NCBI RefSeq assembly: GCF_040869045.1
Contig: NW_027136913.1
Location: 496,001 to 560,000 of the forward strand
From: Eurosta solidaginis
Taxonomy: Eukaryota; Arthropoda; Insecta; Diptera; Tephritidae
Direction: 5' to 3'
DNA: 64,000 nt
Of this stretch, positions 13,410 through 54,341 are shown piece by piece. Below the pieces are notes generated by a model, which searched no databases, was not told the origin of the DNA, and saw only the letters and a program-made list of their open reading frames with translations. The translations under genes were made by a program, and so were the position numbers. How positions within the stretch are numbered: the first letter of the stretch is position 1; each line of letters begins with the position of its first letter.

Positions 13410-14095
13410 CCTTTCATGCGGATTAGGCAAAGGTTATTGTTTTCTGTTTAATTTGCGGATCAAGCGCAAAAAGACAAGAACAAAAAATTATTCCTTTTTT
13501 TTCTTTTTTCTTTGTTCGTTTTTTTGTTTTGTGCGGATTAGGCGCAAGTGTTATAATTTTTTCTTTTAGTCATTTCACGGATTAGGCGCAAAATATATTA
13601 ATTTTAAAATTTCGTATACTTGCTTAGCTGATTAGGCGCATAAGCTTAAATTTTATTTTATTTTTTTATTTTCTTCTGTGGATTAGACGCAGAGTATTAT
13701 AATTTCATATATTGGCTTAGCGGATTAGGCGCATAAGCTTAAATTTTTTTTTTCTTTCTACGGATTAGGCGCAGATTATTCAAATTTCATATATTCGCTT
13801 AGCGGATTAAGCGCATAAGCTTAAAATTGTTTTCTTTTGTTTTTTTTTTTTTTTTTCATTCTACGGATTAGGCGCAGAGAATTAAATATGAATTTGCTTA
13901 GCGGATTAGGCGCATAAGCTCAAATTTTTCTTTTTTTTTTTTCATTCTACGGATTAGGCGCAGAGAATTAAATATGCATTTGCTTAGCGGATTAGGCGCA
14001 TAAGCTCAAATTTTTCTTTTTTCTTTTTCATCTACGGATTAGGCGCAGAGAATTAAATAAATATTTGCTTAGCGGATTAGGCGCATAAGCTCACA
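13410..14095. repeat. Array of about 15 CGGATTAGGCGCA motifs inside the LTR element
   Basis: A 13-bp core CGGATTAGGCGCA, with variants, recurs near 13,420, 13,456, 13,532, 13,578, 13,628, 13,679, 13,721, 13,760, 13,803, 13,863, 13,902, 13,948, 13,988, 14,034 and 14,073. Two alternating contexts (ctaCGG..gag and agCGG..taag) make an ~86-bp unit. Spacers are T-rich. It sits between integrase and the env remnant, where env coding would begin. Confidence 0.88.
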
Positions 14096-14366
14096 TTTTC
14101 CTCTTTTCTCCTGGACCAGAGGTGTTAACATTTCTCGAACCAGCTATGGGGAGATCGCCAGAATCCCGTTTGGAAGTAGTGTAGCCATTTGTCAAATTCG
14201 ATGGCACTACGAGCCTACTAAGGCACGATTTGTCCCACTTACAAGCCCGCTCTTGTTAGATAAACTCCCTCTTGGTGCCAGATCTTTTATAATTTCTTTT
14301 CAGGTTTTTTGTATGTTTGTTTGTTTTATTATGTGGGGGTATTTTGTCCCCTTCTTTTTACATTTT

Positions 14367-15195
14367 TTATATGTGCTTTATAATTTTTATCCCACTAAGT
14401 GTGGTTACAGAAACTTCGTTCTCCTTGGCAACTATTTCCTTTATATAAATTTGTTTTTGTTTCCCCTTTATTTGCTTATCCTTAACGTATATAACATCAT
14501 TTTTGTTATAACGCTTCTGCATGGTCCTTCTCCTATTATGTCTCTCAACCTTAGCCATCTGTTTCTATTTTAATAGTGTTTTTATGTATCTATTAATTTT
14601 CCTGCTTTTGTCAAGGAGTTCCTGATAGTTAGAAGCTTCTGAGCGAATAAAAAATATATCCGAAGGTTTCCTGTTCGTTACAGAGTGAACTGAATTATTA
14701 TAGCGATCTACTGCTATATTAACGAGTCCTTTAGTCCTGAGATCAGAGTTTTCCGCCTTCAGGCATCTATAAATTTCTAGTAACGTGGAGTGGAATCTCT
14801 CAATTTGGCCATTTACCTCACTTCTCTGAGATGAAGTGCGGTAAAGCTGAATTCCCAATGATTCTAATAAGTTCTGTATTATTGGGTTAATCAATCCCCG
14901 TTCATTATCACTGACTAAAATTTTTGGAGTTGTAAAATAGTGGAGAAGCTTCACAATTTTGTGTTTAAGGTGCAGAGTTCCTTTGTTCCTACCGTGAAAA
15001 AGCTTTGCGAATTTTAAAAATTTGTCAATAAAAATTAAAAATTGTTTGTTTCAAAAATATCTAGGTGAAGGATCTCGCAAGGTTGTGATGGGATTGATGT
15101 AGCCTGTAACTCTGTTTTATTAGGGTGTCTATCGTACTTACTAAACTTGCATGTTTCACAAGCCAGTACATATTTCCTAATTTGAGCACGCATTC
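14367..15195 (-). pseudogene. Integrase, broken
   Basis: From 5' to 3' on the minus strand: a zinc-binding region with CxxC wording (about 15,190-15,100), a damaged stretch with stops that should hold the first catalytic Asp (about 15,080-14,960), and an open frame (14,954-14,565) with the second Asp in VSDNERGL and the Glu in NGQIERFHSTL. A C-terminal frame (14,558-14,367) carries NDVIYVKDKQIKGK, like the DNA-binding tail of Gypsy integrases. The enzyme joins element DNA to the host genome. Stops and shifts make this copy inactive. Confidence 0.88.
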
Positions 15196-17994: not shown

Positions 17995-20900
17995 CTAGCC
18001 TTTACCCGCGGCCCCGTCCGCAAGGAGAAATTTAAATATATGGGCTATTCGCGTTAGCCTACTTATTATCTGTTTAAAATTTTGTTTTCTGTCTAATGCA
18101 TTTTATTTTTGTAATTGAGTAAAAAAAAGAACTAAATGAGCTGATAACCTGATAGGATCCCAAATGGTCCCGAAATTATCCAGAAAAAGCTATGAAATTA
18201 CCCCCACGCTATCGCGGACGGATCCCGAAAACCATCCAGAAATGCCCCGAAAGGGTCTCCAAAAGTTCCCCGAATAGTCCCCAAAAAAAACCCGAAATGA
18301 CAGCGACACGATTCTAGACGTATCTAGAGAACCACACAGAAATGATCCCTGAAGGTGTTCCATAATGATCCCGAAAAGGTTCCGAAATGACCCTGACGGG
18401 CTCCCGGGCGGATCTCAAAACCCATCCAGAAAATATCGAGGAAGGGTTCCTAAATTATCCCGACATACTCCAGAAAAAGTTCCGAAATGGCTCCCAGGGG
18501 ATCCACCACGGATCGCGAAAACCATACAGAAATGATTCCGGAAGGATCCCAAAATGGTCCCGAAATAGTCCGGAAATGACCCAGATGCGATCCCGCACAG
18601 ATCCAGAAATGATCCCGGAAGGGTGCAAAAACTATCCCGGAAAAGTAACAAAAAATCCGGAAATGGCTCCTACGGCATCCCGGACGGATCCAGAAATGAT
18701 CTCGAAAGTTCCCCAAATGTTCCCAAAATGGTCCCGAAATGACCCTGATGGATCCGTCAAACCATCAAGAAATTATGCCGAAAGGATCCCAAAATGATCC
18801 CGAAATAATACAGAAAAAGTCACGAAACGACCCCTACAGGATCCCCAAATGATCCCGTATTAGCCCCGAAAAGGTCCCGAAATAACCCCGACGGGATCCC
18901 GGACAAATCCCGAAAACCATCCAGAAATGATGCCGGAAGAAATCCCAAATGATTCCGAAAAAGTCCCGCATTGATTCCGACGGGATCCCGAACGGATACC
19001 GAAAATCATCCAGAAGTGATGCCAGAAAGGTCAGAAGGTAAGGGGTCATGGACGGATCCCATAAACCATCCAGAAATGATCCCGATATAGTCCCGAAGAA
19101 GTCCCGAAATGACCCTGACGGGATCTCGAACGCACCCCTAAATGACCCCGACCGGATCCTGAAAGCCATCTCTAAATTATCCCGAAATGACCCTGACTGG
19201 ACCCCGAAAGGATCCCGAAAACTTTTCAGAAATGATGCCGGAAAGGTCCTCAAATGATCTCCTAATAGTTCCGAAAAGACCCTGACGGGATCCCGAACGG
19301 ATCCCGACAACTATCTAGAAATGATGTCGAAAGGGCCCGCAAATGATCCCGTATTAGTCGAGAAAAAGTCCCGAAATGACCCCGACGGGATGCCGAACGA
19401 ATCCCAAAAACCATCCAGAAATGATGCCGGAAGGGACACCAAATGATCCCGAAAAAGTCCCGCAATTACTCCGACGGGATCCTGAACGGATACCGAAAAC
19501 CATCCAGAAGTGATGCCGGAAAGGTCCTCAAATGATCACCTAATAGTCCCAAAATGACCCTGACGGCATCCCGGACGAATCCTGAAAACCAATCTTAAAT
19601 GATGCCGAAAAAGTCCCGAAATGACCCTGATGGGACACGGAAAGGATCCCGAAAACTAACCAGAAATGATGCCGGAAAGGTCCTCAAATGATCTCCCAAT
19701 AGTTCCGAAAAGACCCTGACGGGATCCCGAACAGATCCCGACAACTATCCAGAAATTATACCGAAAGGGCCCGCAAATGATCCCGTATTAATCGAAAAAA
19801 AGTCCCGAAATGACCCCGACGGGATGCCGGACGAATCCCAAAAACCATCCAGAAATGATGTCGGAAGGGACCCCAATGATCCCGAAAAAGTCCCGCAATT
19901 ATTCCGACGGGATCCTGAACGGATACCGAAAACCATCCAGAAGTGATGCCGGAAAAGTCCTCAAATGCAAACCTAATAGCCCCAAAATTACCCTGACGGC
20001 ATCCCGGACAAATCCCGAAATCCATCCAGAAATGATCTTGGGAAGGTCCCAAAATGATCCCGAAATAGTCTCGGAAAAGTCCAGAAATTACCCTGACGGG
20101 TTCCCGGACGAATCCTGAAAGACCTCCTTAAATGATCCCGAAAAAACCCCGAAATGACCCTGACGGGATCCCGAAAGGATTCCGAAAACTATATAGAAAT
20201 GATGCCGGAAAGGTTCTCAAATGACCCCCTAATAGTCCCGAAATGACCGTGACGGGATCCCGAACGGATCCCGGCAACTATCCAGAAATTATGCCGAAAG
20301 GGTCCGCAAATGATCCCGTATTAGTCGAGAAAAAGTCCCGAAATAACCCCGACGGGATCCCGGACGAATCCCAAAAACCATCCAGAAATGATGCCGGTAG
20401 GTATCCCAAATGATCCCGAAATAATCCCGAAACGACCTCGTCGGCATCCCGGACGGATACCGAAAATTATCCAGAAATGATGCCGGAAAGGTCCACAAAT
20501 GAGCCCTAATATATCCGAAATTACCCTGATGGGATCCCGGACGGATCCCGAAAACCATCCAAAAATGATGTCGAAGGGGTTCCCAAATGATCCCGTATTA
20601 GTCGCGAAAAAGTCCCGAAATGACCCCGACGGCATCCCGGACGGATCCCGAAAAACCATCCAGAAATGATGCCGGAAGAGCCCCAAATGATCCCGAAAAG
20701 GTCCCCAAATGACCCCGACGAGATCCCGGACGGATACCGAAAACCATCCAGAAATGATGCCGGTAGGTATCCCAAATGAACCCGAAATAGTCCCGAAATG
20801 ACCCCGTCCGGATCCCGGACGGATCCCGACAACTATCCAGAAATGATGTCGAAAGGGTCCCCAAATGATCCCGCATTAGTCGAGAAAAAGTCCAGAAATG

Positions 20901-21887
20901 ACCCCGACGGGATCCCGGACGGATCTCGAAAACCATCCAGAAATGATGCTGGAAGAGACCCCAAATGATCCCGCAAAAGTCCCAAAATGACCCCGACAGG
21001 ATCCCGGACGGATCCCGTAAACCATCCAGAAATGATGCCGGAAGAGACCCCAAATGATCCCGCAAAAGTCCCAAAATGACGCCGACGGGATCCCGGACGG
21101 TTCCCGTAAACCATTCAGAAATGATGGCGGAGGAGACCCCAAATGATCCCGCAAAAGTCTCAAAATGACCCCAACAGGATCCCGGACGGATCCCGAAAAC
21201 CATCCAGAAATGATGCTGGAAGAGACCCCAAATGATCCCGCAAAAGTCCCAAAATGACCCCGACAGGATCCCGGACGGATCCCGTAAACCATCCAGAAAT
21301 GATGCCGGAAGAGACCCCAAATGATCCCGCAAAAGTCCCAAAATGACCCCGACAGGATAGATTTTACACCAGAGGGGGCGATAAAGGGGGCGCGGGGGCG
21401 GGCGGAGGGTGTCACTGCTTACTTTGTAAGCCCTCGACATATTTGACCACTTGAGTCTGTGATATTGGTGAAGGCCAGTATACATAAAGTTATGTGTAAA
21501 AATTATTGAAAAATAATTTCTCGAAGGGGTCGTGGGACCCCCACCCCTTTTTCCATGTTCGAAAAAAAAATCGCTAGTATACTACTGTCTGTGTCCCAAA
21601 TTTCATCAAAATCCGTGTAGCCATTCTGGCGTGATTCAGTCGCAAAGACGAAAAAGTATAATTATTAAATTATAACTGTTCCTAGGGGGCGGGGACCACG
21701 CCCCTTTTAAAAAATATATAGTTAGTAGATCCTTCTAGACTATTGGCTATATGTGTGCAAAATTTCATCCAAATCGGTCCAGCTGTTCTTGCGTGATTGA
21801 GTCACAAAGACAAACGTCTGGACAAACATCCAAACATCCAAACATCCAAACATCTTAACATCCAAACTTTGCCATTTATAATATATA
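17995..21887 (-). mobile_element. Helitron-like element with internal satellite, unit 1
   Basis: On the minus strand the 3' end is a short hairpin (GCGG-ACGGGG-CCGC) nine bases before CTAG at 17,998-17,995, followed by T. That is the layout of a Helitron terminus. The 5' module (21,355-21,887) is non-coding and holds a GC palindrome (GGGGCGGGGACCACGCCCC), two phrases of the type TTTCATCAAAATC/TTTCATCCAAATC, and an AAACATCC tract. Between the ends lies a satellite array (about 18,150-21,354). Its left two-thirds is degenerate and its right end is regular in 89-bp steps. No helicase or Rep coding is present, so it is non-autonomous. It abuts unit 2 directly. Confidence 0.72.
18150..21354. repeat. 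Degenerate satellite array (unit 1)
   Basis: Built from the same ~11-bp blocks (ATCCCGAAA, AGTCCCGAAATG, ATCCAGAAATGATGCC) but with irregular spacing and many substitutions. It becomes regular 89-bp copies from about 20,880 to 21,354. Confidence 0.88.
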
Positions 21888-22384
21888 CTAGCCTTTACCC
21901 GCGGCCCCGTCCGCAAGGAGAAAATAAAATATATGTGCTATTCACGTTAGCCTGCTTATCAAGTTGTCTGTTTAAAAATTTTTTCTGTCAATGTATTTTA
22001 TTTTTTAATACAGTAAAAAAAAGAACTAATAGTACAATAGTACAATACACTTTTTTCGAATTAAAAAAATACATTTTGTTTCTAAGTTAAATTAATTGAT
22101 ATGACAGGGGTGAAAGAATTACTACTCATAGAACAAAGGAGTGAAACTACAATTAGCTAAAACCAAAAGGAAGTTTTTAAATGAAAGCAGTGTTGCTTTT
22201 TCGGGTATTTAGTTGGTTAAAATATCACAAAAATTTTAATTATAGTTGTAATAGCTCGTTACAGGATTCATTTAAAAATAGAACGAAAAAGCTGTGATAT
22301 ATTAAAGATAAAACATACCGAATTTTAATTATGAATAATTTGCCGTAAATCCACGGCCATGTGTGCTGAATTACCGGTTTCGAA

Positions 22385-24399
22385 GAGACCTAAAATGATC
22401 CCGGAAGTGTCCCTAAATGACACCAAATAGTCACGAAATGATGCCGACGGGATCCTGGACAAATCTCGAAAACTATCCAGAAATGATGCCGGAAGGGTCC
22501 CAAAATAATCCCGAAGTAGTCACGAAAAGTCCCGAAATGACCCTGACGGGATCCCGGACGGATCCCGAAAACCATCCAGATTTGATTCCGCAAATGATCC
22601 CGATATAGTCCGAAAAAGTTCCGAAAAAACTCTGACGGGATCCCGGACAAATCCCGAAAATCGCCCAGAAATTATCCCGGAGGAGTCCCAAAATGATTCC
22701 GAAATAGTAGTCACGAAAAAGGCCCGAAATGACCCTGACGGGATCCCGAAAACCATCCAGAAATGACTCTGGAGGGATCCGGAAATGATCCCGGAAAAGT
22801 CCACAAACCATCCAGAATTGATCTCTGAAGGTTCCGCAAATGATCCCGAAATAGTCCCGAAAGTCACGAAAAACTCAGACCCATCCCGAAAATCATGAAG
22901 AAATTATCCTGGAAGGGTACCAAAATTACCCCGAAATAACTCCGACGGGATCCCGGACAGATCCCGAAAATCATCCAGAACTGAGCTCTGAAACGTCCGC
23001 AAATAATCCAGAAATAGTCCGGAAAAAGTCCCGAAAAAACTCCGTCGGGATCCCGGACAGATCCCGAAAATCACCGAGAAATTATGCCGGAGGGGTCCCA
23101 AACTGATTCCGAAATAGTCCCGAAAAAGTCCCGAAATGACCTTGAGGGGATCCCAGACCGATACCGAAAACCATCCAGAATTGATCTCTAAAGGGTCCGC
23201 AATTTATCCCAGATAAAGTCGCGAAAAAAACTACGAAGGGATCCCGAACAGATCCCGAAAATCATAGGGAAATTATCCCGGAAGGGTCCCAAAATGATCC
23301 CGAAATAGTCCCGAAAAGGCGCGAAATAACCTTGACGGGATCCCGGACGGATCCCGAAAACCACCCAGAAATGATCTTTAAGGGCAACTGACCCCGAAAT
23401 AGTCGTGAAAAAGTCCCGAAATTACCCCGACGGGATCCCGAAAACCATCCAGAAATTATCCCTGAAGGATCCCCAAATGATCCAAGAACAGTCTCGAAAT
23501 TCCCTGACATTTTCCCGAAAAAGTAAAAAAATAAACCCGACGGGATCTCGGAAGGATCCCGAAAACGATCCAGAAATGATGCCGGAAGGGACACCAAATG
23601 ATCCCGAAAAGTTCCCGAAATTCCCCCGATGGGATCCCGGACGGATCCCGGACCATCCAGAAATGATGCCGGTTGGTACCCCAAAATGATCCCGAAATAG
23701 GCCAGAAATGACCCCGTCGGGATCCCGGACGGATCCCCAAAAGTATACAGAAATGATGCTGGAAGGTGAAATGATCCCCTTAAAGAGAGATGAAAAATGA
23801 AATGATCCCCTTATAGTTCCGAAATGATCCTGACGGGATTCCCGACGGATCCCGAAATGATGCCGGAAAGGTTCCCAAGTTATCCCCAAATAGTCCCGAA
23901 ATTACCCTGACGGTATCCCGGACGGATACCGAAAACCATCTAGAAAAGTGGCCGGAAGATACCCCAAATGATCCCGAAAAAGTCCTGAAATGGTCCAGAC
24001 GGGATCCCGGACGAATCCCGAAAACTATCCATCTAGGTACCCCAAATGATCCCGAAATTGTCCCGAAATGACCCCGCCGGGATCACGGGCGGATCCCGAA
24101 AAAGTCCTGAAATGACCCCGACGGGATCCCGTACGCATCCCGAAAATCATCCAGAAATGATGAAAGTAGGTACCCAAATGATCCCGAAATAGTCACGAAA
24201 TGATCCCGACCGGATGCCGGACGGATCCCGAAAACCAACCAGAAATGATGCCGGTAGGTACCCCAAATGGTCCCGATATGACCCCGTCGGGATCCCGCAC
24301 GGATCCCTAAAACTATCCAGAAATGATGCCGGAAAGGTCCCCAAATAACCCCCTAATAGTCCCGAAATTACGCCGACGGAATCCCGGACGGATCCGGAA
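22385..24399. repeat. Degenerate satellite array (unit 2, left part)
   Basis: Irregular ~11-bp blocks. It closely matches 34,498-36,180 in unit 4, including rare variants such as the GGCGCGAAATAACC stretch (23,317 and 35,437). Confidence 0.87.
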
Positions 24400-26036
24400 A
24401 CCATCCAGAAATGATGCCGGAGGAGACCCCAAATGATCCCGCTAAAGTCCCAAAATGACCCCGACAGGGTCCCGGACGGATACCGTAAACCACCCAGAAA
24501 TGATGCCGGTAGGTACCCCAAATGGTCCCGATATGACCCCGTCGGGATCCCGAACGGATCCCTAAAACTATCCAGAAATGATGCCGAAAGGGTTCCCAAA
24601 TGATCCTGTATTAGTCGAGAAAAAGTTCCGAAATGACTCCGACGGGATCCCGGATGGATCCCGAAAACCATCTAGAAATAATGCCGGAAGAGACCCCAAA
24701 TGATCCCGCAAAGGTCCCAAAATGACCCCGACAGGATCCCGGACGGATCCCGAAAACCATCCAGAAATGATGCCGGAAGAGACCCCAAATGATCCCGCAA
24801 AAGTCCCAAAATTACCCCGACAGGATTCCGGACGGATCTCGTAAACCATCCAGAAATGATGCCGGAAGAGACCCCAAATGATCCCGCAAAAGTCCCAAAA
24901 TGACCCCGACAGGATCCCGGACGGATCCCGTAAACGATCCAGAAATGATGCCGGAAGAGAACCCAAATGATCCCGCAAAAGGCCCAAAATGACCCCGACA
25001 GGATCCCGGACGGATCCCGTAAACCATCCAGAAATGATGCCGGAAGAGACCCCAAATGATCCCGCAAAAGTCCCAAAATGACCCCGACAGGATCCCGGAC
25101 GGATCCCGAAAACCATCCAGAAATGATGCCGGGAGAGACCCCAAATGATCTCGCAAAAGTCCCAAAATGACCCCCACAGGATCCCGGACGGATCTAGTAA
25201 ACCATCCAGAAATGATGCCGGAAGAGACCCCAAATGAAACCCCGCAAAAGTCCCAAAATGACCCCGACAGGATCCCGGACGGATCCCGAAAACCATCCAG
25301 AAATGATGCCGGGAGAGACCCCAAATGATCCCGCAAAAGTCCCAAAATGACCCCGACAGGATCCCGGACGGATCCCGTAAACCATCCAGAAATGATGCCG
25401 GAAGAGAACCCAAATGATCCCGCAAAAGGCCCAAAATGACCCCGACAGGATCCCGGACGGATCCCGTAAACCATCCAGAAATGATGCCGGAAGAGACCCC
25501 AAATGATCCCGCAAAAGTCCCAAAATGACCCCGACAGGATCCCGGACGGATCCCGAAAACCATACAGAAATGATGCCGGAAGAGACCCCAAATGATCCCG
25601 CAAAAGTCTCAAAATGACCCCGACAGGATCCCGGACGGATCCTGTAAACCATCCAGAAATGATGCCGGAAGAGACCCCAAATGATCCCGCAAAAGTCCCA
25701 AAATGACCCCGACAGGATTCCGGACGGATCCCGAAAACCATCCAGAAATGATGCCGGAAGAGACCCCAAATGATCCCGCAAAAGTCCCAAAATGACCCCG
25801 ACAGGATCCCGGACGAATCCCGAAAACCATCCAGAAATGATGCCGGAATGGACCCCAAATGGTCCCGAAATGACACCGACGGGATCCCGGACGGATACCG
25901 AAAACCATCCAGAAATGATGCCGGCAGGTACCCCAAATTATCCCGAAATAGTCCCGAAATGACCCTGACGGGATCGCGGACGGATTCCGAAAACCATCCA
26001 GAAATGATGCCGATAAGGTCCCCAAATGATCCTGTA

Positions 26037-28016
26037 TTAGTCGAAAAAAAATTCCGAAATGACTCCGACGGGATCTCGGACGGATCCCGAAAACCATCTA
26101 GAATTGATACCGGAAGGTACCCCAAATGATGCCGAAATAGTCCCGAAATGACATCGACGGGATCCCGGACGGATCCCGAAAACCATCCAGAAATGATGCC
26201 GGAGGAGACCCCAAATGATCCCGCTAAAGACCCAAAATGACCCCGACAGGGTCCCGGACGGATCTCGTAAACCATCCAGAAATGATGCCGGAAGAGACCC
26301 CCAAATGATCCCGCAAAAGTCCCAAAATGACCCCGACAGGATCCCGGACGGATCCCGTAAACCATCCAGAAATGATATCGGAAGAGACCCCAAATGATCC
26401 CGCAAAAGTCCCAAAATGACCCCGACAGGGTCCCGGACGGATCCCGAAAACCATCCAGAAATGATGCCGGGAGAGACCCCAAATGATCCCGCATAAGTCC
26501 CAAAATGACCCCGACAGGATCCCGGACGGATCCGGTAAACCATCCAGAAATGATGCCGGAGGAGACCCCAAATGATCCCGCTAAAGTCCCAAAATGACCC
26601 CGACAGGGTCCCGGACGGATCCCGTAAACCATCCAGAAATGATGCCGGAAGAGACCCCAAATGATCCCGCAAAAGTCCCAAAATTACCCCGACAGGATCC
26701 CGGACGGATCCCGTAAACCATCCAGAAATGATGCCGGAAGAGACTCCAAATGATCCCGCAAAAGTCCCAAAATGACCGCGACAGGATCCCGGACGGATCC
26801 CGTAAACCATCCAGAAATGATGCCGGAAGAGACCCCAAATGATCCCGCAAAAGTCCCAAAATGACCCCGACAGGATCCCGGACGGATCCCGTAAACCATC
26901 CAGAAATGATGCCGGAGGAGACCCCAAATGATCCCGCAATAGTCTCAAAATGACCCCGACAGGATCGCGGACGGATCCCGAAAACCATCCAGAAATGATG
27001 CTGGAAGAGGCCCCAAATGATCCCGCAAAAGTCCCAAAATGACCCCGAAAGGATCCCGGACGGATCCCGTAAACCATCCAGAAATGATGCCGGAAGAGAC
27101 CCCAAATGATCCCGCAAAAGTCCCAAAATGACGCCGACAGGATCCCGGACGGTTCCCGTAAACCATCCAGAAATGATGCCGGAGGAGACCCCAAATGATC
27201 CCGCAATAGTCTCAAAATGACCCCGACAGGATCCCGGACGGATCCCGAAAACCATCCAGAAATGATGCTGGAAGAGGCCCCAAATGATCCCGCAAAAGTC
27301 CCAAAATGACCCCGAAAGGATCCCGGACGGATCCCGTAAACCATCCAGAAATGATGCTGGAAGAGGCCCCAAATGATCCCGCAAAAGTCCCAAAATGACC
27401 CCGAAAGGATCCCGGACGGTTCCCGTAAACCATCCAGAAATGATGCCGGAGGAGACCCCAAATGATCCCGCAAAAGTCTCAAAATTACCCCGACAGGATC
27501 CCGGACGGATCCCGAAAACCATCCAGAAATGATGCTGGAAGAGACCCCAAATGATCCCGCAAAAGTCCCAAAATTACCCCGACAGGATCCCGGACGGATC
27601 CCGTAAACCATCCAGAAATGATGCCGGAAGAGACCCCAAATGATCCCGCAAAAGTCCCAAAATGACCCCGACAGGATCCCGGACGGATCCCGTAAACCAT
27701 CCAGAAATGATGCCGGAGGAGACCCCAAATGATCCCGCAAAAGTCTCAAAATGACCCCGACAGGATCCCGGACGGATCCCGAAAACCATCCAGAAATGAT
27801 GCTGGAAGAGACCCCAAATGATCCCGCAAAAGTCCCAAAATGACCCCGACAGGATCCCGGACGGATCCCGTAAACCATCCAGAAATAATGCCGGAAGAGA
27901 CCCCAAATGATCCCGCAAAAGTCCCAAAATGACGCCGACGGGATCCCGGACGGATCCCGTAAACCATCCAGAAATGATGCTGGAAGAGACCCCAAATGAT
28001 CCCGCAAAAGTCCCAA
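26037..28016 (-). other. Long satellite-borne open frame (659 codons), not a supported gene
   Basis: The minus strand of the 89-bp unit lacks stops in all three frames. Because 89 is not a multiple of three, a frame passes through all three phases and encodes an 89-residue repeat with wording such as SFLDGLRDPSGILSGSFWDF and HHFWMVYGIRPGSCRGHFG. Similar long frames occupy 24,812-26,632 (606 codons) and 37,416-39,149 (577 codons), overlapping others in different phases. Overlap of several long frames in the same DNA, absence of a known domain, and identity to the satellite unit argue that these are by-products of composition. Translation cannot be excluded. Confidence 0.75.
26911..27979. repeat. 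267-bp higher-order repeat in the satellite
   Basis: Variant GCCGGAGGAG recurs at 26,911, 27,178, 27,445 and 27,712, and variant GCTGGAAGAG at 27,000, 27,267, 27,534 and 27,801. Both series have exactly 267-bp spacing (three 89-bp units). Confidence 0.88.
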
Positions 28017-29414
28017 AATGACGCCGACGGGATCCAGGACGGATCCCTAAAACCATCCAGGAATGATTACGGAAAGGACCCAAACTGACCCCGAAAAAGT
28101 CCCGTAATGATCCCGGAAACCATCAAGAATTTATCTCTCGAAGGTACGCAAATAATCCCGAAAGTACCCCGACGGGATCCCGGACGGATCCCGAAAACCA
28201 TCCAGAAATGATGCCGGAAGGGTCCCCAAATGATCGCGAAATAGTCCCGAAATGATTCCGGAATAGTCCCGAAAATGTCCCAAAATAACCCCGACGGGAT
28301 CCCGGACGGATCCCGAAAACTATACAGAAATGATCCCGGAAGGGTCCCAAAATGATCCCGAAATAGTCCCGAAAAAGTCCCGAAATTACCCCGGCGTAAT
28401 CCCGGACCGATCCCGAAAACCATCCAGAAATGATCCCGGAGGGTCTCGATATGACCCTTACGGGATTACAAATAAGGTGAAGCTAATTATAAAACCATGT
28501 TAATAAGGCAGCAGGCGCATTGGAGTGAATAAAAAGTTACATAAAAACATACAGGTAAAGCTAATAAAAGCGTGCTAATAAAAACAATTGATGGAGGGCG
28601 GATGGCGGGAGTAGAGGAGAGGACCACTGATCGTTCCTCCAAAATTGTCTAGATCTCGTTCTGTATGTACCAGATACCAAAAACTATTGATTTAGGAGAA
28701 AATTTATATTGATTTATAACAATTAATAGATTTTACACAAGAGGGGGAAATAAAGGGGGGGGGGGGCCGGCGGAGGGTGTCACTGCTTACTTTGTAAGCC
28801 CTCGACTTATTTGACCCCTTGAGTCTGTGATATTGGTGAAGGCCAGTATACATAAAGTTATAATGTGTAAAAATTAAAAAAAATAATTTCTCGAAGGGGT
28901 CGTGGGACACCCACCCCTCTTTCCATGTTCGAAAAAAATTTCGCTAGTAGACTACTGTCTGTGTCCCAAATTTCATCAAAATCCGTGTAGCCATTCTGGC
29001 GTGATTCAGTCGCAAAGACGAAAAAATATAATAATTAAATTATAACTGTTCCTAGGGGGCGGGGACCACGCCCCTTTTCAAAAATATATAGTTAGTAGAT
29101 CCTTCTGGACTATTGGCTATATGTGTGCAAAATTTCATCCAAATCGGTCCAGCCGTTCTTGCGTGATTGAGTCACAAAGACAAACGTCTGGACAAACATC
29201 CAAACATCCAAACATCCAAACATCTTCACATCCAAACTTTGCCATTTATAATATACTAGCCTTTACCCGCGGCCCCGTCCGCAAGGAGAAAATGAAATAT
29301 GTGGGCTATTCACGTTAGCCTGCTTATAAAGTTATCTGTTTAAAATTTTTTTTCTGTCTAATGCATTTTATTTTTGTAATTGAGTAAAAAAAAGAACTTT
29401 TTGAGCTGATAACC

Positions 29415-32400
29415 TGATAGGATCCCAAAATGATAACGAAATTATCCAGAAAAAGCCACGAAATGACCCCGACGCTATCGCGGACGGATCCCGAAAACCA
29501 TCCAGAAACACCCCGGAAGTGTTTCCAAAAGTTCCCGAAGTAGTCCCAAAAAACCCGAAATGACAACGACACGATTCTAGACTTATCCAGATAACCACAC
29601 AGAAATGATGCCTGAAGGGTACCAAATTGATCCCGAAATAGTCCCGAAAAAGTTCCGAAATTACCCTGACGGGCTCCCGGACGGATCTCAGAAACCATCC
29701 AGAAAATATCCAGGAAGGGTCCCTAAATTATCCCGACTAACTCCAGAAAAAGTTCCGAAATGGCTCCGAGGGGATCCACGATGGATCGCGAAAACCATAC
29801 AGAAATGATTCCGGAAGGATTCCAAAATGATCCCGAAATAGTCCGGAATTGACCCAGATGGGATCCCGCACAGATCCAGAAATGATCCCGGAAGGGTGCA
29901 AAAACTATCCCGGAAAAGTAACAAAAAATCCCAAAATGGCTCCTACGGCATCCCGGACGGATCCAGAAATGATCTCGGAAGGGTCCCCAAATGATCCCAA
30001 AATGGTCCCGAAATGACCCTGATGGATCCGGCAAACCATCAAGAAATTATGCCGAAAGGGTCCCAAAACGATCCCGAAATAATACAGAAAAAGTCACGAA
30101 ACGACCCCTAGAGGATCCCCAAATGATCCCGTATTAGCCCCGAAAAGGTCCCGAAATAACCCCGACGGGATCCCGGACAAATCCCGAAAACCATCCAGAA
30201 ATGATGCCGGAAGGAATCCCAAATGATTCCGTAAAATTCCCGCATTGATTCCGACGGGATCCCGAACGGATACCGAAAATCATCCAGAAGTGATGCCGCA
30301 AAGGTCCTCAAATGATCACCTAATAGTCCCGAAATGACCCTTAAGGGGTCATGGACGGATCCCATAAACCATCCAGAAATGATCCCGATATATTCCCGAA
30401 GAAGTCCCGAAATGACCCTGACGGGATCTCGAACGCACCCCTAAATGACCCTGACGGGATCCCGGACAGACCCCGAAATCCATCAAGAAATGATCTTGAG
30501 AGGGACCCCAAATGATCCCGAAAAAGTCCCGCAATGATTCCGAGGGAATCCTGATCGGATACCGATAACCATCCAGAAGTGATGCCGGAAAGGTCCTCAA
30601 ATGATCACCTAATACCAAAATGACCCTGACGGCATCCCGGACTGATCCCAAAATCCATCCAGAAATGATCTTGGGAAGGTCCCAAAATTATCCCGAAATA
30701 GTCTCGGAAAAGTTCAGAAATTACCCTGACGGGTTCCCGGACGAATCCTGAAAGCCATCTCTAAATGATCCCGAAAAAGTCCCGAAATGACCCTGACTGG
30801 ACCCCGAAAGGATCCCGAAAACTATACAGAAATGATGCCGGAAATGTCCTCAAATGAACACCTAATAGTTCCGAAAAGACCCTGACGGGATCCCGAACGG
30901 ATCCCGACAACTATCTAGAAATGATGCCGAAAGGGCCCGCAAATGATCCCGTATTAGTCGAGAAAAAGTCCCGAAATGAACCCGACGGGATGCCGGACGA
31001 ATCCCAAAAACCAGCCAGAAATGATGTCGGAAGGGACACCAAATGATCCCGAAAAAGTCCCGCAATAATTCCGACGGGATCCTGAGCGGATACCGAAAAC
31101 CATCCAGAAGTGATGCCGAAAAAGTCCTCAAATGATCACCTAATAGTCCCAAAATGACCCTGACGGCATCCCGGATAGATCCCGAAATCCATCCAGAAAT
31201 GATCTTGGGAGGGTCCCAAAATTATCCCGAAATAGTCTGGGAAATGTCCAGAAATTACCCTGACGGATACCGGACGAATCCTGAAAACCAATCTTAAATG
31301 ATGCCGAAAAAGTCCCGAAATGACCCTGATGGGACCCGGAAAGGATCCCGAAAACTAACCAGAAATGATGCCGGAAAGGTCCTCAAATGATCTCCCAATA
31401 GTTCCGAAAAGACCCTGACGGGATCCCGAACGGATCCCGACAACTATCCAGAAATGATACCGAAAGGGCCCGCAAATGATCCCGTATTAGTCGAGAAAAA
31501 GTCCCGAAATGACCCCGACGGGATGCCGGACGAATCCCAAAAACCATCCAGAAATGATTTTGGAAGGGACCCCAATGATCCCGAAAAAGTCCCGCAATTA
31601 TTCCGACGGAATCTGAACGGATACCGAAAACCATCCAGAAGTGATGCCGGAACGGTCCTCAAATGTTCACCTAATAGTCCCAAAATGACCCTGAGGGCAT
31701 CCCGGACAAATCCCGAAATCCATCCAGAAATGATCTTGGGAAGGTCCCAAAATGATCCCGAAATAGTTTCGGAAAAGTCCAGAAATTACCCTGACGGGTT
31801 CCCGGACGAATCCTGAAAGCCATCCTTAAATGATCCCGAAAAAGCCCCGAAATGACCCTGACGGGATCCCGCAAGGATTCCAAAAACTATCCAGAAATGA
31901 TGCCGGAAAGATCCTCAAATGATCCACTAATAGTTCCGAAATGACCGTGACGGGATCCCGAACGGATCCCGACAACTATCCAGAAATTATGCCGAAAGGG
32001 TCCGCAAATGATCCCGTATTAGTCGAGAAAAAGTCCCGAAATGACCCCGACGGGATCCCGGACGAATCCCAAAAACCATCCAGAAATGATGCCGGTAGGT
32101 ATCCCAAATGATCCCGAAATAATCCCGAAATGACCTCGTCGGCATCCCGGATGGATACCGTAAATTATCCAGAAATGATGCCGGAAAGGTCCACAAATGA
32201 TCCCCTAATAGTCCCGAAATTACCCTGATGGGATCCCGGACGGATCCCGAAAATAGGAAATAGGTCCGAAATTACCTCGTCGGCATCCCGGACGGATCCC
32301 GAAAATTATCCAGAAATGATGCCGGAAAGGTTCCCAAATGATCCCCTAATAGTCCCGAAATTACCCTAATGGGATCCCGGACGGATCCCGAAAACCATCC

Positions 32401-33140
32401 AGAAATGATGCCGAAAGGGTTCCCAAATGATCCCGTATTAGCCGCGAAAAAGTCCCGAAATGACTCCGACGGGATCCCGGACGGATCCCGAAAACCATTC
32501 AGAAATGATGCCGAAAGGGTTCCCAAATGATCCCGTATTAGTCGCGAAAAAGTCCCGAAATGACCCCGACGGGATCCCCGACGGATCCCGAAAACCATCA
32601 AGAAATGATGCCGAAAGGGTTCCCAAATGATCCCGTATTAGTCGCGAAAAAGTCCCGAAATGACCCCGACGGGATCCCGGACGGATCCCGAAAACCATCC
32701 AAAAATGATGCCGGATGAGCCCCAAAATGATCCCGAAAAAGTCCCCAAATGACCCCGACGAGATCCCGGACGGATCCCGAAAACCATCCAGAAATGATGC
32801 CGGATGAGCCCCAAAATGATCCCGAAAAAGTCCCCAAATGACCCCGACGAGATCCCGCACGGATCCCGAAAACCATCCAGAAATGATGCCGGAAGGGTCC
32901 CCAAATGATCGCGAAATAGTCCCGAAATGATTCCGGAATAGTCCCGAAAATGTTCCAAAATAACCCCGACGGGATCCCGGACGGATCCCGTAAACTATAC
33001 AGAAATGATCCCGGAAGGGTCCCAAAATGATCCCGAAATAGTCCCGAAAAAGTCCCGAAATTACCCCGGCGTAATCCCGGACCGATCCCGAAAACCATCC
33101 AGAAATGATCCCGGAAGGGTCTCGATATGACCCTTACGGG
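29415..33140. repeat. Degenerate satellite array (unit 3)
   Basis: Parallels unit 1 at its left end and the end of unit 2 at its right. Local duplications are present, for example three similar ~90-130-bp blocks at 32,390-32,690. Confidence 0.87.
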
Positions 33141-33844
33141 ATTACAAATAAGGTGAAGCTAATTATAAAACCATGTTAATAAGGCAGCAGGCGCATTGGA
33201 GCGAATAAAAATTTAGATAGAAACATACAGGTAAAGCTAATAAAAGCGTGCTAATAAAAACAATTGATGGAGGGCGGATGGCGGGAGTAGAGGAAAGGAC
33301 CACTGATCGTTCCTCCAAAATTGTCTAGATCTCGTTCTGTATGTACCAGATACCAAAAACTATTGATTTAGGAGAAAATTTAGATTGAGTTATAACAATT
33401 TATGGATTTTACACCAGAGGGGGAGATAAAGGGGGGCGGTCGGAGGGTGTCACTGCTTACTTTGTAAGCCCTCGACTTATTTGACCCCTTGAGTCTGTGA
33501 TTGGTAAAGTTATAATGTGTAAAAATTATGAAAAATAATTTCTCGAAGGGTCGTGGGACCCCCACCCCTCTTTCAATGTTCGAAAAAAATTTCGCTAGTA
33601 GACTACTGTCTGTGTCCCAAATTTCATCAAAATCCGTGTAGCCATTCTGGGGTGATTCAGTCGCAAAGACGAAAAAATATAATAATTAAATTATAACTGT
33701 TCCTAGGGGGCGGGGACCACGCCCCTTTTGAAAAATATATAGCTAGTAGATCCTTCTAGACTATTGGCTATATGTGTGCAAAATTTCATCCAAATCGGTC
33801 CAGCCGTTCTTGCGTTATTGAGTCACAAAGACAAACGTCTGGAC

Positions 33845-33955
33845 AAACATCCAAACATCCAAACATCCAAACATCCAAACATCCAAACATCCAAACATCC
33901 AAACATCCAAACATCTAAACATCCAAACATCCAAACATCTTAACATCCAAACTTT
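33845..33955 (+). repeat. (AAACATCC)n microsatellite in the unit 3 tail
   Basis: About 12 units of the 8-bp motif AAACATCC, against roughly 4-6 in the tails of units 1, 2 and 4 (about 21,825-21,870, 29,195-29,240 and 39,680-39,730). Confidence 0.85.
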
Positions 33956-34497
33956 CCCATTTATAATATATATTAGATAGCCTTTACCCGCGGCCCCGTC
34001 CGCAAGGAGAAAATAAAATATATGTGCTATTCACGTTAGCCTGCTTATCAAGTTGTCTGTTTAAAAATTTTTTCTGTCAATGTATTTTATTTTTTAATAC
34101 AGTAAAAAAAAAGAACTAACTGAGCTGATGGGCACGCTTACATGAATAGTACAATACACATTTTTCGAATTAAAAAAAATACATTTTGTTTCTAAGTTAA
34201 ATTAATTGATATGACAGGGGTGAAAGAATTACTACTCATAGAACAAAGGAGTGAAACTACAATTAGCTAAAACCAAAAAGAAGTTTTTAAATGAAAGCAG
34301 TGTTGCTTTTTCGGGTATTTAGTTGGTTAAAATATTACAAAGATTTTAATTATAGTTATAATAGTTCGTTACAGGATTCATTTAAAAATAGAACGAAAAA
34401 GCTGTGATATATTAAAGATAAAACATACCGAATTTTAATTACGAATAATTTGCCGTAAATCCACGGCCATGTGTGCTGAACTACCGGTTTCGAAGAG

Positions 34498-36179
34498 ACC
34501 TAAAATGATCCCGGGAGTGTCCCTAAATGACACCAAATAGTGACGAAATGATGCCGACGGGATCCTGGACAAATCTCGAAAACTATCCAGAAATAATGCC
34601 GGAAGGGTCCCAAAATAATCCCGAAGTAGTCACGAAAAGTCCCGAAATGACCCTGACGGGATCCCGGACGGGATCCCGAAAACCATCCAGATTTGATTCC
34701 TGAACGGTCCGCAAATGATCCCGATATAGTCCGAAAAAGTCCCGAAAAAACTCTGACGGGATCCCGGACAAATCCCGAAAATCGCCCAGAAATTATCCCG
34801 GAGGAGTCCCAAAATGATTCCGAAATAGTAGTCACGAAAAAGGCCCGAAATGACCCTGACGGGATCCCGAAAACCATCCAGAAATGACTCTGGAGGGATC
34901 CGAAAATGATTCCGGAAAAGTCCACAAACCATCCAGAATTGATCTCTGAAGGTTCCGCAAATGATTCCGAAATAGTCCCGAAAGTCACGAAAAACTCAGA
35001 CCCATCCCGAAAATCATGAAGAAATTATCCTGGAAGGGTACCAAAATTACCCCGAAATAACTCCGACGGGATCCCGGACAGATCCCGAAAATCATCCAGA
35101 ACTGAGCTCTGAAACGTCCGCAAATAATCCAGAAATAGTCCGGAAAAAGTCCCGAAAAAACTCCGTCGGGATCCCGGACAGATCCCGAAAATCACCCAGA
35201 AATTATGCCGGAGGGGTCCCAAAATGATTCCGAAATAGTCCCGAAAAAGTCCCGAAATGACCTTGAGGGGATCCCAGACCGATACCGAAAACCATCCAGA
35301 ATTGATCTCTAAAGGGTCCGCAATTTATCCCAGATAAAGTCGCGAAAAAACTACGAAGGGATCCCGAACAGATCCCGAAAATCATAGGGAAATTATCCCG
35401 GAAGGGTCCCAAAATGATCCCGAAATAGTCCCGAAAAGGCGCGAAATAACCCTGACGGGATCCCGACCGGATCCCGAAAACCACCCAGAAATGATCTTTA
35501 AGGGCAACTGACCCCGAAATAGTCGTGAAAAAGTCCCGAAATTACCCCGACGGGATCCCGAAAACCATCCAGAAATTATCCCTGAAGGATCCCCAAATGA
35601 TCCAAGAACAGTCTCGAAATTCCCTGACATTTTCCCGAAAAAGTAAAAAAATAAACCCGACGGGATCTCGGACGGATCCCGGACCATCCAGAAATGATGC
35701 CGGTTGGTACCCCAAAATGATCCCGAAATAGGCCAGAAATGACCCCGTCGGGTTCCCGGACGGATCCCCAAAAGTATACAGAAATGATTCTGGAAGGTGA
35801 AATGATCCCCTTATAGTTCCGAAATGATCCTGACGGGATTCCCGACGGATCCCGGAAACTATCCAGAAATGATGCCGGAAAGGTTCCCAAGTTATCCCCA
35901 AATAGTCCCGAAATTACCCTGACGGTATCCCGGACGGATCACGAAAACCATCCGGAAATGATGGCGAAAGGGTCCCCAAATGATCCCGCATTAGTCGCGG
36001 GTTCCGAAATGACCATGACGGGATCCCCGAAGGATCCCGGAAACTATCCAGAAATGATGCCGGAAAGGTTCCCAAGTTATCCCCAAATAGTCCCGAAATT
36101 ACCCTGACGGTATCCCGGACGGATACCGAAAACCATCTAGAAAAGTGGCCGGAAGATACCCCAAATGATCCCGAAAAAG
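34498..36179. repeat. Degenerate satellite array (unit 4, left part)
   Basis: Counterpart of 22,385-24,399, with small insertions and deletions between the two. Confidence 0.87.
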
Positions 36180-39100
36180 TCCTGAAATGATCCAGACAGG
36201 GTCCCGGACGGATCCCGTAAACCATCCAGAAATGATGCCGGAAGAGACCCCAAATGATCTCGCAGAAGTCCCAAAATGACCCCCACTGGATCCCGGACGG
36301 ATCTCGTAAACCATCCAGAAATGATGCCGGAAGAGACCCCAAATGATCCCGCAAAAGTCCCAAAATGACCCCGACAGGATCCCGGACGGATCCCGTAAAC
36401 CATCCAGAAATGATGCCGGTTGGTACCCCAAATGGTCCCGATATAACCCCGTCGGGATCCCGCACGGATCCCTAAAACTATCCAGAAATGATGCCGGAAA
36501 GGTCCCCAAATAACCCCCTAATAGTCCCGAAATTACGCCGACGGAATCCCGGACGGATCCGGAAACCATCCAGAAATGATGCCGGAGGAGACCCCAAATG
36601 ATCCCGCTAAAGTCCCAAAATGACCCCGACAGGGTCCCGGACGGATCCCGTAAACCATCCAGAAATGATGCCGGTAGGTACCCCAAATGGTCCCGATATG
36701 ACCCCGTCGGGATCCCGAACGGATCCCTAGAACTATCCAGAAATGATGCCGAAAGGGTCCCCAAATAATCCTGTATTAGTCGAGAAAAAGTTCCGAAATG
36801 ACTCCGACGGGATCCCGGATGGATCCCGAAAACCATCTAGAAATGATGCCGGAAGAGACCCCAAATGATCCCGCAAAGGTCCCAAAATGACCCCGACAGG
36901 ATCCCGGACGGATCCCGTAAACCATCCAGAAATGATGCCGGAAGAGACCCCAAATGATCTCGCAAAAGTCCCAAAATGACCCCGACAGGATCCCGGACGG
37001 ATCCCGTAAACCATCCAGAAATGATGTCGGAAGAGACCCCAAATGATCCCGCAAAAGGCCCAAAATGACCCCGACAGGATCCCGGACGGATCCCGAAAAC
37101 CATCCAGAAATGATGCCGGAGGAGACCCCAAATGATCCCGCTAAAGTCCCAAAATGACCCCGACAGGATCCCGGACGGATCCCGTAAACCATCCAGAAAT
37201 GATGCCGGAAGAGACCCCAAATGATCTCGCAAAAGTCCCAAAATGACCCCGACAGGATCCCGGACGGATCCCGTAAACCATCCAGAAATGATGTCGGAAG
37301 AGACCCCAAATGATCCCGCAAAAGGCCCAAAGTGACCCCGACAGGATCCCGGACGGATCCCGAAAACCATACAGAAATGATGCCGGAAGAGACCCCAAAT
37401 GATCCCGCAAAAGTCTCAAAATGACCCCGACAGGATCCCGGACGGATCCTGTAAACCATCCAGAAATGATGCCGGAAGAGACCCCAAATGATCCCGCAAA
37501 GTCCCAAAATGACCCCGACAGGATTCCGGACGGATCCCGAAAACCATCCAGAAATGATGCCGGAAGAGACCCCAAATGATCCCGCAAAAGTCCCAAAATG
37601 ACCCCGACAGGATCCCGGACGGATCCCGAAAACCAACCAGAAATGATGCCGGAATGGACCCCAAATGGTCCCGAAATGACACCGACGGGATCCCGGACGG
37701 ATACCGAAAACCATCCAGAAATGATGCCGGCAGGTACCCCAAATTATCCCGAAATAGTCCCGAAAGGACCCTGACGGGATCGCGGACGGATTCCGAAAAC
37801 CATCCAGAAATGATGCCGATAAGGTCCCCAAATGATCCTGTATTAGTCGAGAAAAAATTCCGAAATGACTCTGACGGGATCCCGGACGGATCCCGAAAAC
37901 CATCTAGAATTGATACCGGAAGGTACCCCAAATGATGCCGAAATAGTCCCGAAATGACATCGACGGGATCCCGGACGGATCCCGAAAACCATCCAGAAAT
38001 GATGCCGGAGGAGACCCCAAATGATCCCGCTAAAGACCCAAAATGACCCCGACAGGGTCCTTGACGGATCCCGTAAACCATCCAGAAATGATGCTGGAAG
38101 AGACCCCAAATGATCCCGCAAAAGTCCCAAAATGACCCCGACAGGATCCCGGACGGATCCCGTAAACCATCCAGAAATGATGTCGGAAGAGACCCCAAAT
38201 GATCCCGCAAAAGTCCCAAAATGACCCCGACAGGATCATGGACGGATCCCGAAAACCATCCAGAAATGATGCCGGGAGAGACCCCAAATGATCCCGCATA
38301 AGTCCCAAAATGACCCCGACAGGATCCCGGACGGATCCCGTAAACCATCCAGAAATGATGCCGGAGGAGACCCCAAATGATCCCGCTAAAGTCCCAAAAT
38401 GACCCCGACAGGGTCCCGGACGGATCCCGTAAACCATCCAGAAATGATGCCGGAAGAGACCCCAAATGATCCCGCAAAAGTCCCAAAATGACCCCGACAG
38501 GATCCCGGACGGATCCCGTAAACCATCCAGAAATGATGCCGGAAGAGACTCCAAATGATCCCGCAAAAGTCCCAAAATGACCGCGACAGGATCCCGGACG
38601 GATCCCGTAAACCATCCAGAAATGATGCCGGAAGAGACCCCAAATGATCCCGCAAAAGTCCCAAAATGACCCCGACAGGATCCCGGACGGATCCCGTAAA
38701 CCATCCAGAAATGATGCCGGAGGAGACCCCAAATGATCCCGCAAAAGTCTCAAAATGACCCCGACAGGATCCCGGACGGATCTCGAAAACCATCCAGAAA
38801 TGATGCTGGAAGAGACCCCAAATGATCCCGCAAAAGTCCCAAAATGACCCCGACAGGATCCCGGATGGATCCCGTAAACCATCCAGAAATGATGCCGGAA
38901 GAGACCCCAAATGATCCCGCAAAAGTCCCAAAATGACGCCGACGGGATCCCGGACGGTTCCCGTAAACCATTCAGAAATGATGGCGGAGGAGACCCCAAA
39001 TGATCCCGCAAAAGTCTCAAAATGACCCCAACAGGATCCCGGACGGATCCCGAAAACCATCCAGAAATGATGCTGGAAGAGACCCCAAATGATCCCGCAA

Positions 39101-39208
39101 AAGTCCCAAAATGACCCCGACAGGATCCCGGACGGATCCCGTAAACCATCCAGAAATGATGCCGGAAGAGACCCCAAATGATCCCGCAAAAGTCCCAAAA
39201 TGACCCCG
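36180..39208. repeat. Homogeneous 89-bp satellite core (unit 4)
   Basis: About 34 copies of the same 89-bp unit, closely matching the unit 2 core in variant order over long stretches (for example 25,556 onward against 37,366 onward) and matching the right end of unit 1 at its own right end (variant GGCGGAGGAGACC near 21,125 and 38,982). Confidence 0.9.
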
Positions 39209-39754
39209 ACAGGATAGATTTTACACCAGAGGGGCGATAAAGGGGGCACGGGGCGGGCGGAGGGTGTCACTGCTTACTTTGTAAGCCCTCGACATATTTG
39301 ACCACTTGAGTCTGTGATATTGGTGAAGGCCAGTATACATAAAGTTATGTGTAAAAATTATTGAAAAATAATTTCTCGAAGGGGTCGTGGGACCCCCACC
39401 CCTCTTTCCATGTTCGAAAAAAATTTCGCTAGTAGACTACTGTCTGTGTCCCAAATTTCATCAAAATCCGTGTAGCCATTCTAGCGTGATTCAGTCGAAA
39501 AGACGAAAAAATATAATAATTAAATTATAACTGTTCATAGGGGGCGGGGACCACGCCCCTTTCAAAAATATATAGTTAGTAGATCCTTCTAGACTATTGG
39601 CTATATGTGTGCAAAATTTTGTCCAAATCGGTCCAGCCGTTCTTGCGTGATTGAGTCACAAAGACAAACGTCTGGACAAACATCCAAACATCCAAACATC
39701 CAAACATCCAAACATCTTCACATCCAAACTTTGCCATTTATAATATATATTAGA

Positions 39755-49541: not shown

Positions 49542-49603
49542 GTCCGTCCGTCCGTCCGTCCGTCCGTCCGTCCGTCCGTCCGTCCGTCCGTCCGTCCGTC
49601 CGT
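49542..49603 (+). repeat. (CCGT)n microsatellite in DINE copy 2
   Basis: About 15 units. Copy 1 has only two or three at the corresponding place (near 11,318-11,330). Confidence 0.9.
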
Positions 49604-54326: not shown

Positions 54327-54341
54327 TGACAAGTGTGATAT

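What the first reader, a model, noticed from the sequence alone, without database searches (positions are those of the whole stretch)
17995..39754. Satellite DNA carried inside four head-to-tail Helitron-like elements
The whole 21.8-kb block reads on the minus strand as A|TC ... hairpin-9 nt-CTAG|T. Three internal junctions place the tail of one unit directly against the CTAG head of the next, with no host DNA between. Each unit carries kilobases of 89-bp-type satellite. Known parallels are DINE-TR1 in Drosophila, where a rolling-circle element carries tandem repeats, and tandem Helitron arrays. I infer that rolling-circle read-through plus unequal exchange is building satellite DNA from a transposon here. 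I know of no description of this exact 89-bp family.
Basis: partly seen in the sequence, partly recalled or inferred. Interest (0 to 1): 0.87.

Follow-up and report, generated by a model that had tools for sequence, protein, structure and literature searches.

The report
Helitrons stacking into their own ends
Four satellite-carrying jumping genes lie end to end here, most likely because each newcomer inserted into the first few letters of the previous one, and the leftover letters form a small readable log of the insertions.

Summary
17,995-39,754 is four head-to-tail, apparently non-autonomous Helitron-type elements (minus strand, A|TC...CTAG|T), each carrying kilobases of 89-bp satellite. 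The proposed mechanism, rolling-circle read-through plus unequal exchange, is not what the joins show. The 5' end is TCTAATATATATTATAAATGG. Two joins lack its first 7 and first 5 nt (cut at A|T), and exactly those pieces, TCTAA then TCTAATA, stand outside the array at 39,755-39,766, in the order expected if each new element inserted into the 5' end of the resident. The same 1.9-Gb genome holds 3,200 exact-pattern joins. Of the 200 listed, all on contig C1, 161 are clean 5- or 7-nt cuts and 9 exact head-to-tail joins. 'Ladders' of such stubs mark outer 5' ends. On C1 innermost stub and next join agree in 15 of 19 scorable cases (P = 0.02); several arrays misfit, most simply through later loss of units. 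Units of one array are no more alike than units of different arrays. Best reading: self-targeted 5'-end insertion builds satellite blocks one element at a time. Parallels: maize Helitron nesting and TE double insertion.

The parts
17995..21887 (-). Unit U1 (3' type A, short 5' type); by the model the first inserted; 5' terminus cut by 5 nt (TCTAA missing)
21888..29255 (-). Unit U2 (3' type B, long 5' type); 5' terminus cut by 7 nt (TCTAATA missing)
29256..33977 (-). Unit U3 (3' type A, long 5' type); 5' terminus complete (TCTAATATATATT...)
33978..39754 (-). Unit U4 (3' type B, short 5' type); outermost, by the model youngest; 5' terminus complete; last G of its CTAG missing
39755..39766 (-). 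Stub ladder TCTAA + TCTAATA: by the model the 5' stubs of U1 and U2 left outside the array; host A at 39,767 on this strand
17995..18140 (-). 3'-terminal module of U1 with GCGG/CCGC hairpin, 9 nt, CTAG; copies begin at 21,888, 29,256 and 33,978
21355..21887 (-). 5'-terminal module of U1; 1,941 candidate places in the genome, of which 40 were scored (itself 100%, the other 39 95-97% identical)
24270..28115 (.). 89-bp satellite in U2, about 43 copies, with weak 11/22-bp internal periodicity
35633..39215 (.). 89-bp satellite in U4, about 40 copies
19168..21358 (.). 89/189/434-bp satellite in U1, more diverged, about 70% match at period 89
30763..32930 (.). 89/100/200-bp satellite in U3, more diverged, about 65% match at period 89
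33844..33952 (.). 8-bp microsatellite (CAAACATC)n just inside the 5' end, 13.6 copies in U3; 5.6, 5.6 and 6.6 copies in U1, U2 and U4

Best explanation
A non-autonomous canonical-type Helitron family that carries satellite DNA inserts preferentially, and in one orientation, into A|T sites within the first 0-7 nt of the 5' end of a resident copy. Each insertion puts the newcomer's CTAG against the shortened 5' end of the resident and leaves the resident's first 5 or 7 nt as a stub outside. The newcomer's own intact 5' end is then the next target. The array grows at one end, and the stubs pile up as a ladder that records the insertions, oldest outermost. Here: host A|T received U1; U2 hit U1 at A5|T6; U3 hit U2 at A7|T8; U4 inserted at the A|T exactly in front of U3. 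Shown by sequence: joins, stubs, their order in this array, and genome-wide recurrence of such joins and ladders. Inferred: that the helper Rep protein recognises its own 5' terminus as target, and that units are later lost by recombination, which is needed to explain the misfits.
For: (1) Window: the missing 5 and 7 nt are found outside in the predicted order. (2) 1,312 + 1,888 = 3,200 exact-pattern joins genome-wide, reversed-pattern control 0; of the 200 listed (first 100 of each search, all on C1; coded by hand) 109 lack 7 nt, 52 lack 5 nt, 16 are insertions into or before a ladder, 9 exact, 14 other. (3) The 40 scored copies of the 5' module: 27 are in joins, all in the same orientation; the 13 outer ends carry 37 stubs. 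(4) C1 to 119.57 Mb: innermost stub against next inner join agrees in 15 of 19 scorable cases, P = 0.024; the subset from the ladder search alone 12 of 13, P = 0.005; with five arrays from elsewhere 18 of 24, P = 0.036. (5) By hand, 5 of 10 multi-stub ladders on C1 agree throughout, e.g. C1:22,449,122 (7,7,7) and C1:135,521,911 (5,5,7). (6) In-ladder strikes predict a 5-nt stub outside: 2 of 3 exact, third 6 nt. (7) Array neighbours are not closer kin than strangers. (8) A ladder-free solitary copy with A|T flanks.
Against: The stub-join association is moderate, not perfect. Misfits: L071 stub 5 vs join 7 and L079 stub 7 vs 5; L070 stub 9 vs 7; third position of the C4:257.6M array; on C1 26,166,088 (5 vs 7), 107,994,671 (5 vs 7), 108,250,377 and 71,072,534 (7 vs 5), 27,835,613 (5 vs 0,7,5) and stubs of 9 or 11 nt facing 7 or irregular joins. 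L067 has one stub but a single unit. 10 of 33 ladder ends on C1 have no listed inner join within 15 kb. Stubs outnumber clean truncations (37 vs 19 in the 40-copy sample), so unit loss or another source of stubs must be assumed; slippage could add some. An age-order test with the ATGGC/ATGGG variant showed no trend (19 vs 17 adjacent pairs, P = 0.87). In the C2 array neighbours are 99.8% identical with uniform joins and no outer 5' end found, which looks like ordinary duplication.
Confidence: 0.75

Rival explanations
1. Rolling-circle read-through makes concatemers that integrate as tandem arrays.
For: Helitron-type ends; tandem head-to-tail joins; Helraiser forms precise end-to-end circles (PMC5876387, passages), and that paper cites tandem arrays as support for rolling-circle transposition.
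Against: Exact joins are 9 of 200 listed; truncations fall on A|T and matching pieces stand outside; array neighbours are not closer kin; 33 of 45 multi-join chains mix types.
Confidence: 0.08
2. One or a few founder dimers arose and unequal exchange or segmental duplication multiplied the units.
For: C2 array: tails 99.8% and heads 100% identical with uniform 5-nt joins; the two C1:287.3M tails are also 99.8% identical; three 2,782-bp-spaced copies with the same ladder on C1 near 52.95 Mb; module reassortment among U1-U4.
Against: Does not explain stub ladders or their agreement with truncations, nor mixed join types; on average neighbours are not closer than strangers.
Confidence: 0.09
3. 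The outer TCTAA/TCTAATA repeats are only slippage of an AT-rich terminus and unrelated to the truncated joins.
For: Short repeats in an AT-rich context; a ladder on a single unit; stub counts exceed truncations; stubs of 4, 6, 9 and 11 nt occur; 4 of 19 scorable C1 pairs disagree.
Against: Agreement of stub and join 15 of 19, whole-ladder matches, the window match, and ladder strings found behind CTAG inside joins, as insertion into a ladder would leave. It also leaves the A|T-bounded truncations unexplained.
Confidence: 0.08

Closest known systems
Maize HelA nested Helitrons (PMC3288121, passages read; it cites its reference 14 for the preference)
   Same: Helitrons inserting near or inside other Helitrons; elements with multiple termini arise from nesting
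   Different: No stub ladder or ordered 5-7 nt 5'-terminal target in the passages seen; no satellite cargo mentioned there
TE dimers through insertion-site preference, McGurk and Barbash (seen only as cited in the review PMC12628747, passages)
   Same: Tandem dimers come from insertion-site preference rather than replication and may seed satellites
   Different: Drosophila melanogaster TEs; here a Helitron type hits its own 5' terminus and leaves ordered stubs
Rolling-circle amplified centromeric Helitrons in plants, Xiong et al. (seen only as cited in PMC12628747)
   Same: Tandem Helitron arrays linked to satellite formation
   Different: There many arrays have multiple 5' ends and a single 3' end, explained by rolling circle; in the four arrays mapped here nearly every unit has both ends (exception: outermost C2 unit) and joins look like insertions
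DINE-TR1 and oyster Cg_HINE elements (PMC7492417, passages; DINE-TR1 from listings and citations)
   Same: Rolling-circle elements with central tandem repeats
   Different: Cg_HINE are Helentron-type with T-rich/TT targets; this family has TC/CTAG ends and A|T targets
Hel-2 Helitrons of insects (PMC4344730, passages)
   Same: 5'-TC, 3'-CTAG, flanking A and T, a microsatellite near the 5' end, 3' hairpin
   Different: No satellite cargo or tandem stacking in the passages seen; their sequences were not compared

Membership tests
Helitron (canonical type) | 5'-TC and 3'-CTRR (CTAG) ends | tested here: met
Helitron (canonical type) | Insertion between A and T without target duplication | tested here: met
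   Host A before the outer 5' end at window, C5, C1, C4, the 10 outer ends and the one; host T after CTAG at window, C5, C1, C2, L067 and L077. No empty site was compared.
Helitron (canonical type) | Hairpin shortly before the 3' end | tested here: inconclusive
   GCGG/CCGC stem 9 nt before CTAG, but folding is no better than in shuffles (z 0.18)
Helitron (canonical type) | RepHel protein (own or of a partner) | not tested
   No RepHel domain in the ten window ORFs given to Pfam, only one of them inside the array; the genome was not searched for a partner
Helentron / HINE (DINE-1 type) | T-rich/TT insertion site | tested here: not met
   A|T flanks; ends TC and CTAG
Rolling-circle Helitron concatemer | Exact end-to-end joins and near-identical units | tested here: not met
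   9 of 200 listed joins exact; within-array identity not above between-array; the C2 array is a partial exception in unit identity
Satellite DNA | Tandem repeat arrays over kilobases | tested here: met
   blocks independent of the elements were not searched for

The most novel reading that the evidence does not exclude
This Helitron family has a self-targeting mode: its transposition machinery treats the 5' terminus of a resident copy as a preferred, orientation-specific target. This has built probably more than a thousand ordered arrays, many with a stub ladder that logs their insertion history, and turns a dispersed satellite-carrying transposon into satellite blocks without read-through or unequal exchange. 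The stub ladder gives a direct way to read the birth order of repeat units.
Probability: 0.5. Interest if true: 0.75.

Novelty: new variant of a known kind. Interest (0 to 1): 0.62.

Why it matters
Tandem Helitron arrays are cited as evidence of rolling-circle replication (so in PMC5876387, passage). Here thousands of such joins carry the signature of serial insertion instead. The stubs give an internal record that can be read in any long-read assembly, so the old question of how satellites grow out of transposons becomes testable array by array.

Tried and rejected
Rolling-circle concatemers, unequal exchange as the main builder, and pure slippage were considered and ranked as rivals. Inheritance of the ladder with the element was considered: 5' modules 99.3% alike occur with a ladder of six (C5) and with none (L077), so it is not simply carried along. 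Age order by the ATGGC/ATGGG variant gave no trend (19 vs 17); a count of ladder ends with the ATGGG variant was asked for and never answered, and so was a count of all complete 5' ends. Rfam found nothing at gathering score in the window. A phage search with the 5' module and two viral-contig patterns found nothing. The one prokaryote-genome pattern scan gave 32 hits, about what chance gives for a 17-mer by my estimate; none was used. Pfam hits in a satellite ORF (two DUFs above cut-off, HTH_3 below it) were judged composition noise. Rows dropped before the order test on C1 to 119.57 Mb: of 33 ladder ends, 10 have no listed inner join, 8 have a stub or join that is not 5 or 7, and 2 repeat a triplication, leaving 13; six more scorable pairs come from ladders inside joins. 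The C1:287.3M array was left out because one piece of its ladder is irregular, the L070 array because its stub is 9. Not done: search for a RepHel partner, empty-site comparison, naming the species, sequence comparison with named Helitron libraries.
Full report
What is there. On the minus strand the block 17,995-39,754 reads as four consecutive elements, U4 (39,754-33,978), U3 (33,977-29,256), U2 (29,255-21,888) and U1 (21,887-17,995). Each begins with a 5' module of about 530 bp that has an 8-bp microsatellite near its end, goes on into kilobases of 89-bp satellite, and ends in a 3' module of about 140 bp closing with GCGG-loop-CCGC, 9 nt, CTAG. Host A precedes and host T follows. The hairpin is present but folds no better than shuffled sequence (z 0.18). 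No RepHel domain was seen in the ten window ORFs tested, one of which lies in the array, so the elements look non-autonomous; a partner gene was not sought.

The units are not copies of one another. U1 and U3 share their 3' part and satellite type, U2 and U4 share another; but U2 and U3 share a longer 5' part, and U1 and U4 a shorter one. All four combinations of two 3' types and two 5' types are present.

The joins. The complete 5' end is TCTAATATATATTATAAATGG. At U3/U2 the join is CTAG|TATATTATAAATGG, seven nt short; at U2/U1 it is CTAG|TATATATTATAAATGG, five nt short; at U4/U3 the 5' end is complete and the G of CTAG is missing. Outside the array the host flank reads ...GTAAA TCTAA TCTAATA and then the complete 5' end of U4. 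This 12-mer occurs once in the window, with 0.01 expected. If U2 inserted at A5|T6 of U1, U3 at A7|T8 of U2, and U4 at the A|T in front of U3, these 12 nt in this order are what must remain. Read-through predicts neither the cuts nor the stubs.

The genome. The window lies in a 1.9-Gb assembly of 569 contigs (contig C41). The 5' module has 1,941 candidate places, of which 40 were scored. I read or looked up the outer side of these 40: 27 are joins in the same orientation (8 lack 5 nt, 11 lack 7 nt, 4 exact, 4 with ladder pieces behind CTAG) and 13 are outer ends carrying 6, 6, 1, 2, 2, 6, 2, 0, 0, 0, 6, 2 (plus one irregular piece) and 4 stubs. These 40 are the best-scoring copies, not a random sample. 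Pattern searches count 1,312 and 1,888 exact joins for two variants of the 5' core, with none for the reversed pattern. Only the first 100 places of each search are listed, all on C1. Of these 200, 109 lack 7 nt, 52 lack 5 nt, 9 are exact, 16 lie in or before a ladder and 14 are other (coded by hand). The ladder pattern has 688 forward matches, in which every stub start seems to count, and 304 reverse matches, in which each locus seems to count once.

The order test. I paired ladder ends and joins listed on C1 up to 119.57 Mb. Of 33 ladder ends, 23 have an inner join within 15 kb and 10 have none. Innermost stub against next inner join: 5-5 five times, 7-7 nine times (three of these are one triplication, so seven), 5-7 once, 7-5 never; P = 0.005 after merging. 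Six more scorable pairs come from ladders that lie inside joins: 7-7 two, 5-5 one, 5-7 one, 7-5 two. With them the count is 15 of 19, P = 0.024. Adding the window, C5 and C4 arrays (7-7), L071 (5-7) and L079 (7-5) gives 18 of 24, P = 0.036; adding two C1 ladders beyond 119.57 Mb, where only the first join list reaches (both 5-5), gives 20 of 26, P = 0.015. The remaining eight pairs cannot be scored: two 5-nt stubs and one 6-nt stub face an in-ladder strike, which predicts 5; one 5 faces an exact join and one an irregular join; two 9-nt and one 11-nt stub face 7-type or irregular joins.

Whole ladders, compared by hand on C1: ten have at least two stubs and at least two listed inner joins. Five agree throughout: 22,449,122 (7,7,7), 18,666,019 (7,5), 26,177,277 (7,7), 80,180,881 (7,7) and 135,521,911 (5,5,7). 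Four agree in part: 107,987,285, 97,494,990, 52,951,027 and 56,749,029. One does not agree (26,166,088: 5,5 against 7,7). Outside C1 the C5:37.13M ladder (7,4,5,6,7,7 from young to old) resembles its joins 7,5,5,7 if the 4 and 6 are damaged 5 and 7, with two oldest stubs unmatched.

Results against. L071, L079, L070, the third position of C4:257.6M and the C1 places named above do not agree. L067 has one stub but one unit. There are more stubs than clean truncations. The simplest addition is that recombination between units removes units while the outer ladder stays; variation in the number of TA steps also blurs the reading, since some 5' ends carry four or more. Slippage may add a few stubs. 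In the C2 array the 5' modules are 99.8% identical, the joins uniform, and no 5' end of the outermost unit was found, so ordinary duplication is likely there. The subfamily-age test gave no trend.

Against concatemers. In 22 five-prime and 21 three-prime modules from eight fetched places, identity within a place is 0.941 and 0.873, between places 0.947 and 0.895; the nearest relative lies in the same place for 8 of 22 and 2 of 21. Of 45 chains on C1 with two or more joins, 33 mix join types.

How it probably works (inferred). A preference for A|T is general for Helitrons (PMC13286980, passages). Even with many thousands of copies, the A|T sites in their first 7 nt would be a minute share of all A|T sites of a 1.9-Gb genome, so thousands of hits there, in one orientation in the 27 joins read, call for recognition (estimate, not a computed control). 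The likeliest agent is the helper Rep protein, which must bind this very 5' terminus to start transposition. A solitary, ladder-free, full-length copy at about C4:159,984,161-159,990,997 shows the single-element state.

Literature. In maize, nesting of Helitrons and a preference for inserting near or inside others is reported (PMC3288121, passages). A review (PMC12628747, passages) cites insertion-site preference as the source of TE dimers and rolling-circle amplification as the source of plant Helitron arrays; I did not see those originals. The searches listed no title or abstract start that I recognised as describing a stub ladder; I read passages of seven papers and no paper whole, and the library lacks most subscription papers.

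Noticed in passing
window 50,789-53,219 and 62,422-63,064: A second satellite family of about 128/257 bp (18.7 copies) and, 9 kb on, a 130-bp array whose unit looks like the same family in the opposite orientation (judged by eye).
   Followed up: no
window 13,663-14,107: An 82-86-bp tandem repeat with GGATTAGGCGC-type sub-repeats and long T runs.
   Followed up: no
window 49,542-49,603: A perfect (GTCC)15.5 microsatellite.
   Followed up: no
window 53,534-54,367 (-) and 14,565-15,050 (-): Pfam matches below cut-off to a reverse-transcriptase zinc-binding domain and an integrase core: possible retrotransposon remains.
   Followed up: no
G000 C1:52,945,404-52,951,027: Three copies of the same 5' end with identical ladder spaced exactly 2,782 bp: a later tandem triplication.
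   Followed up: partly
L084 (G000 C5:153,976,301-153,984,300): An element whose CTAG is followed by a (TA)n tract and then another element's stub and 5' end, so a join with TA repeats between.
   Followed up: partly
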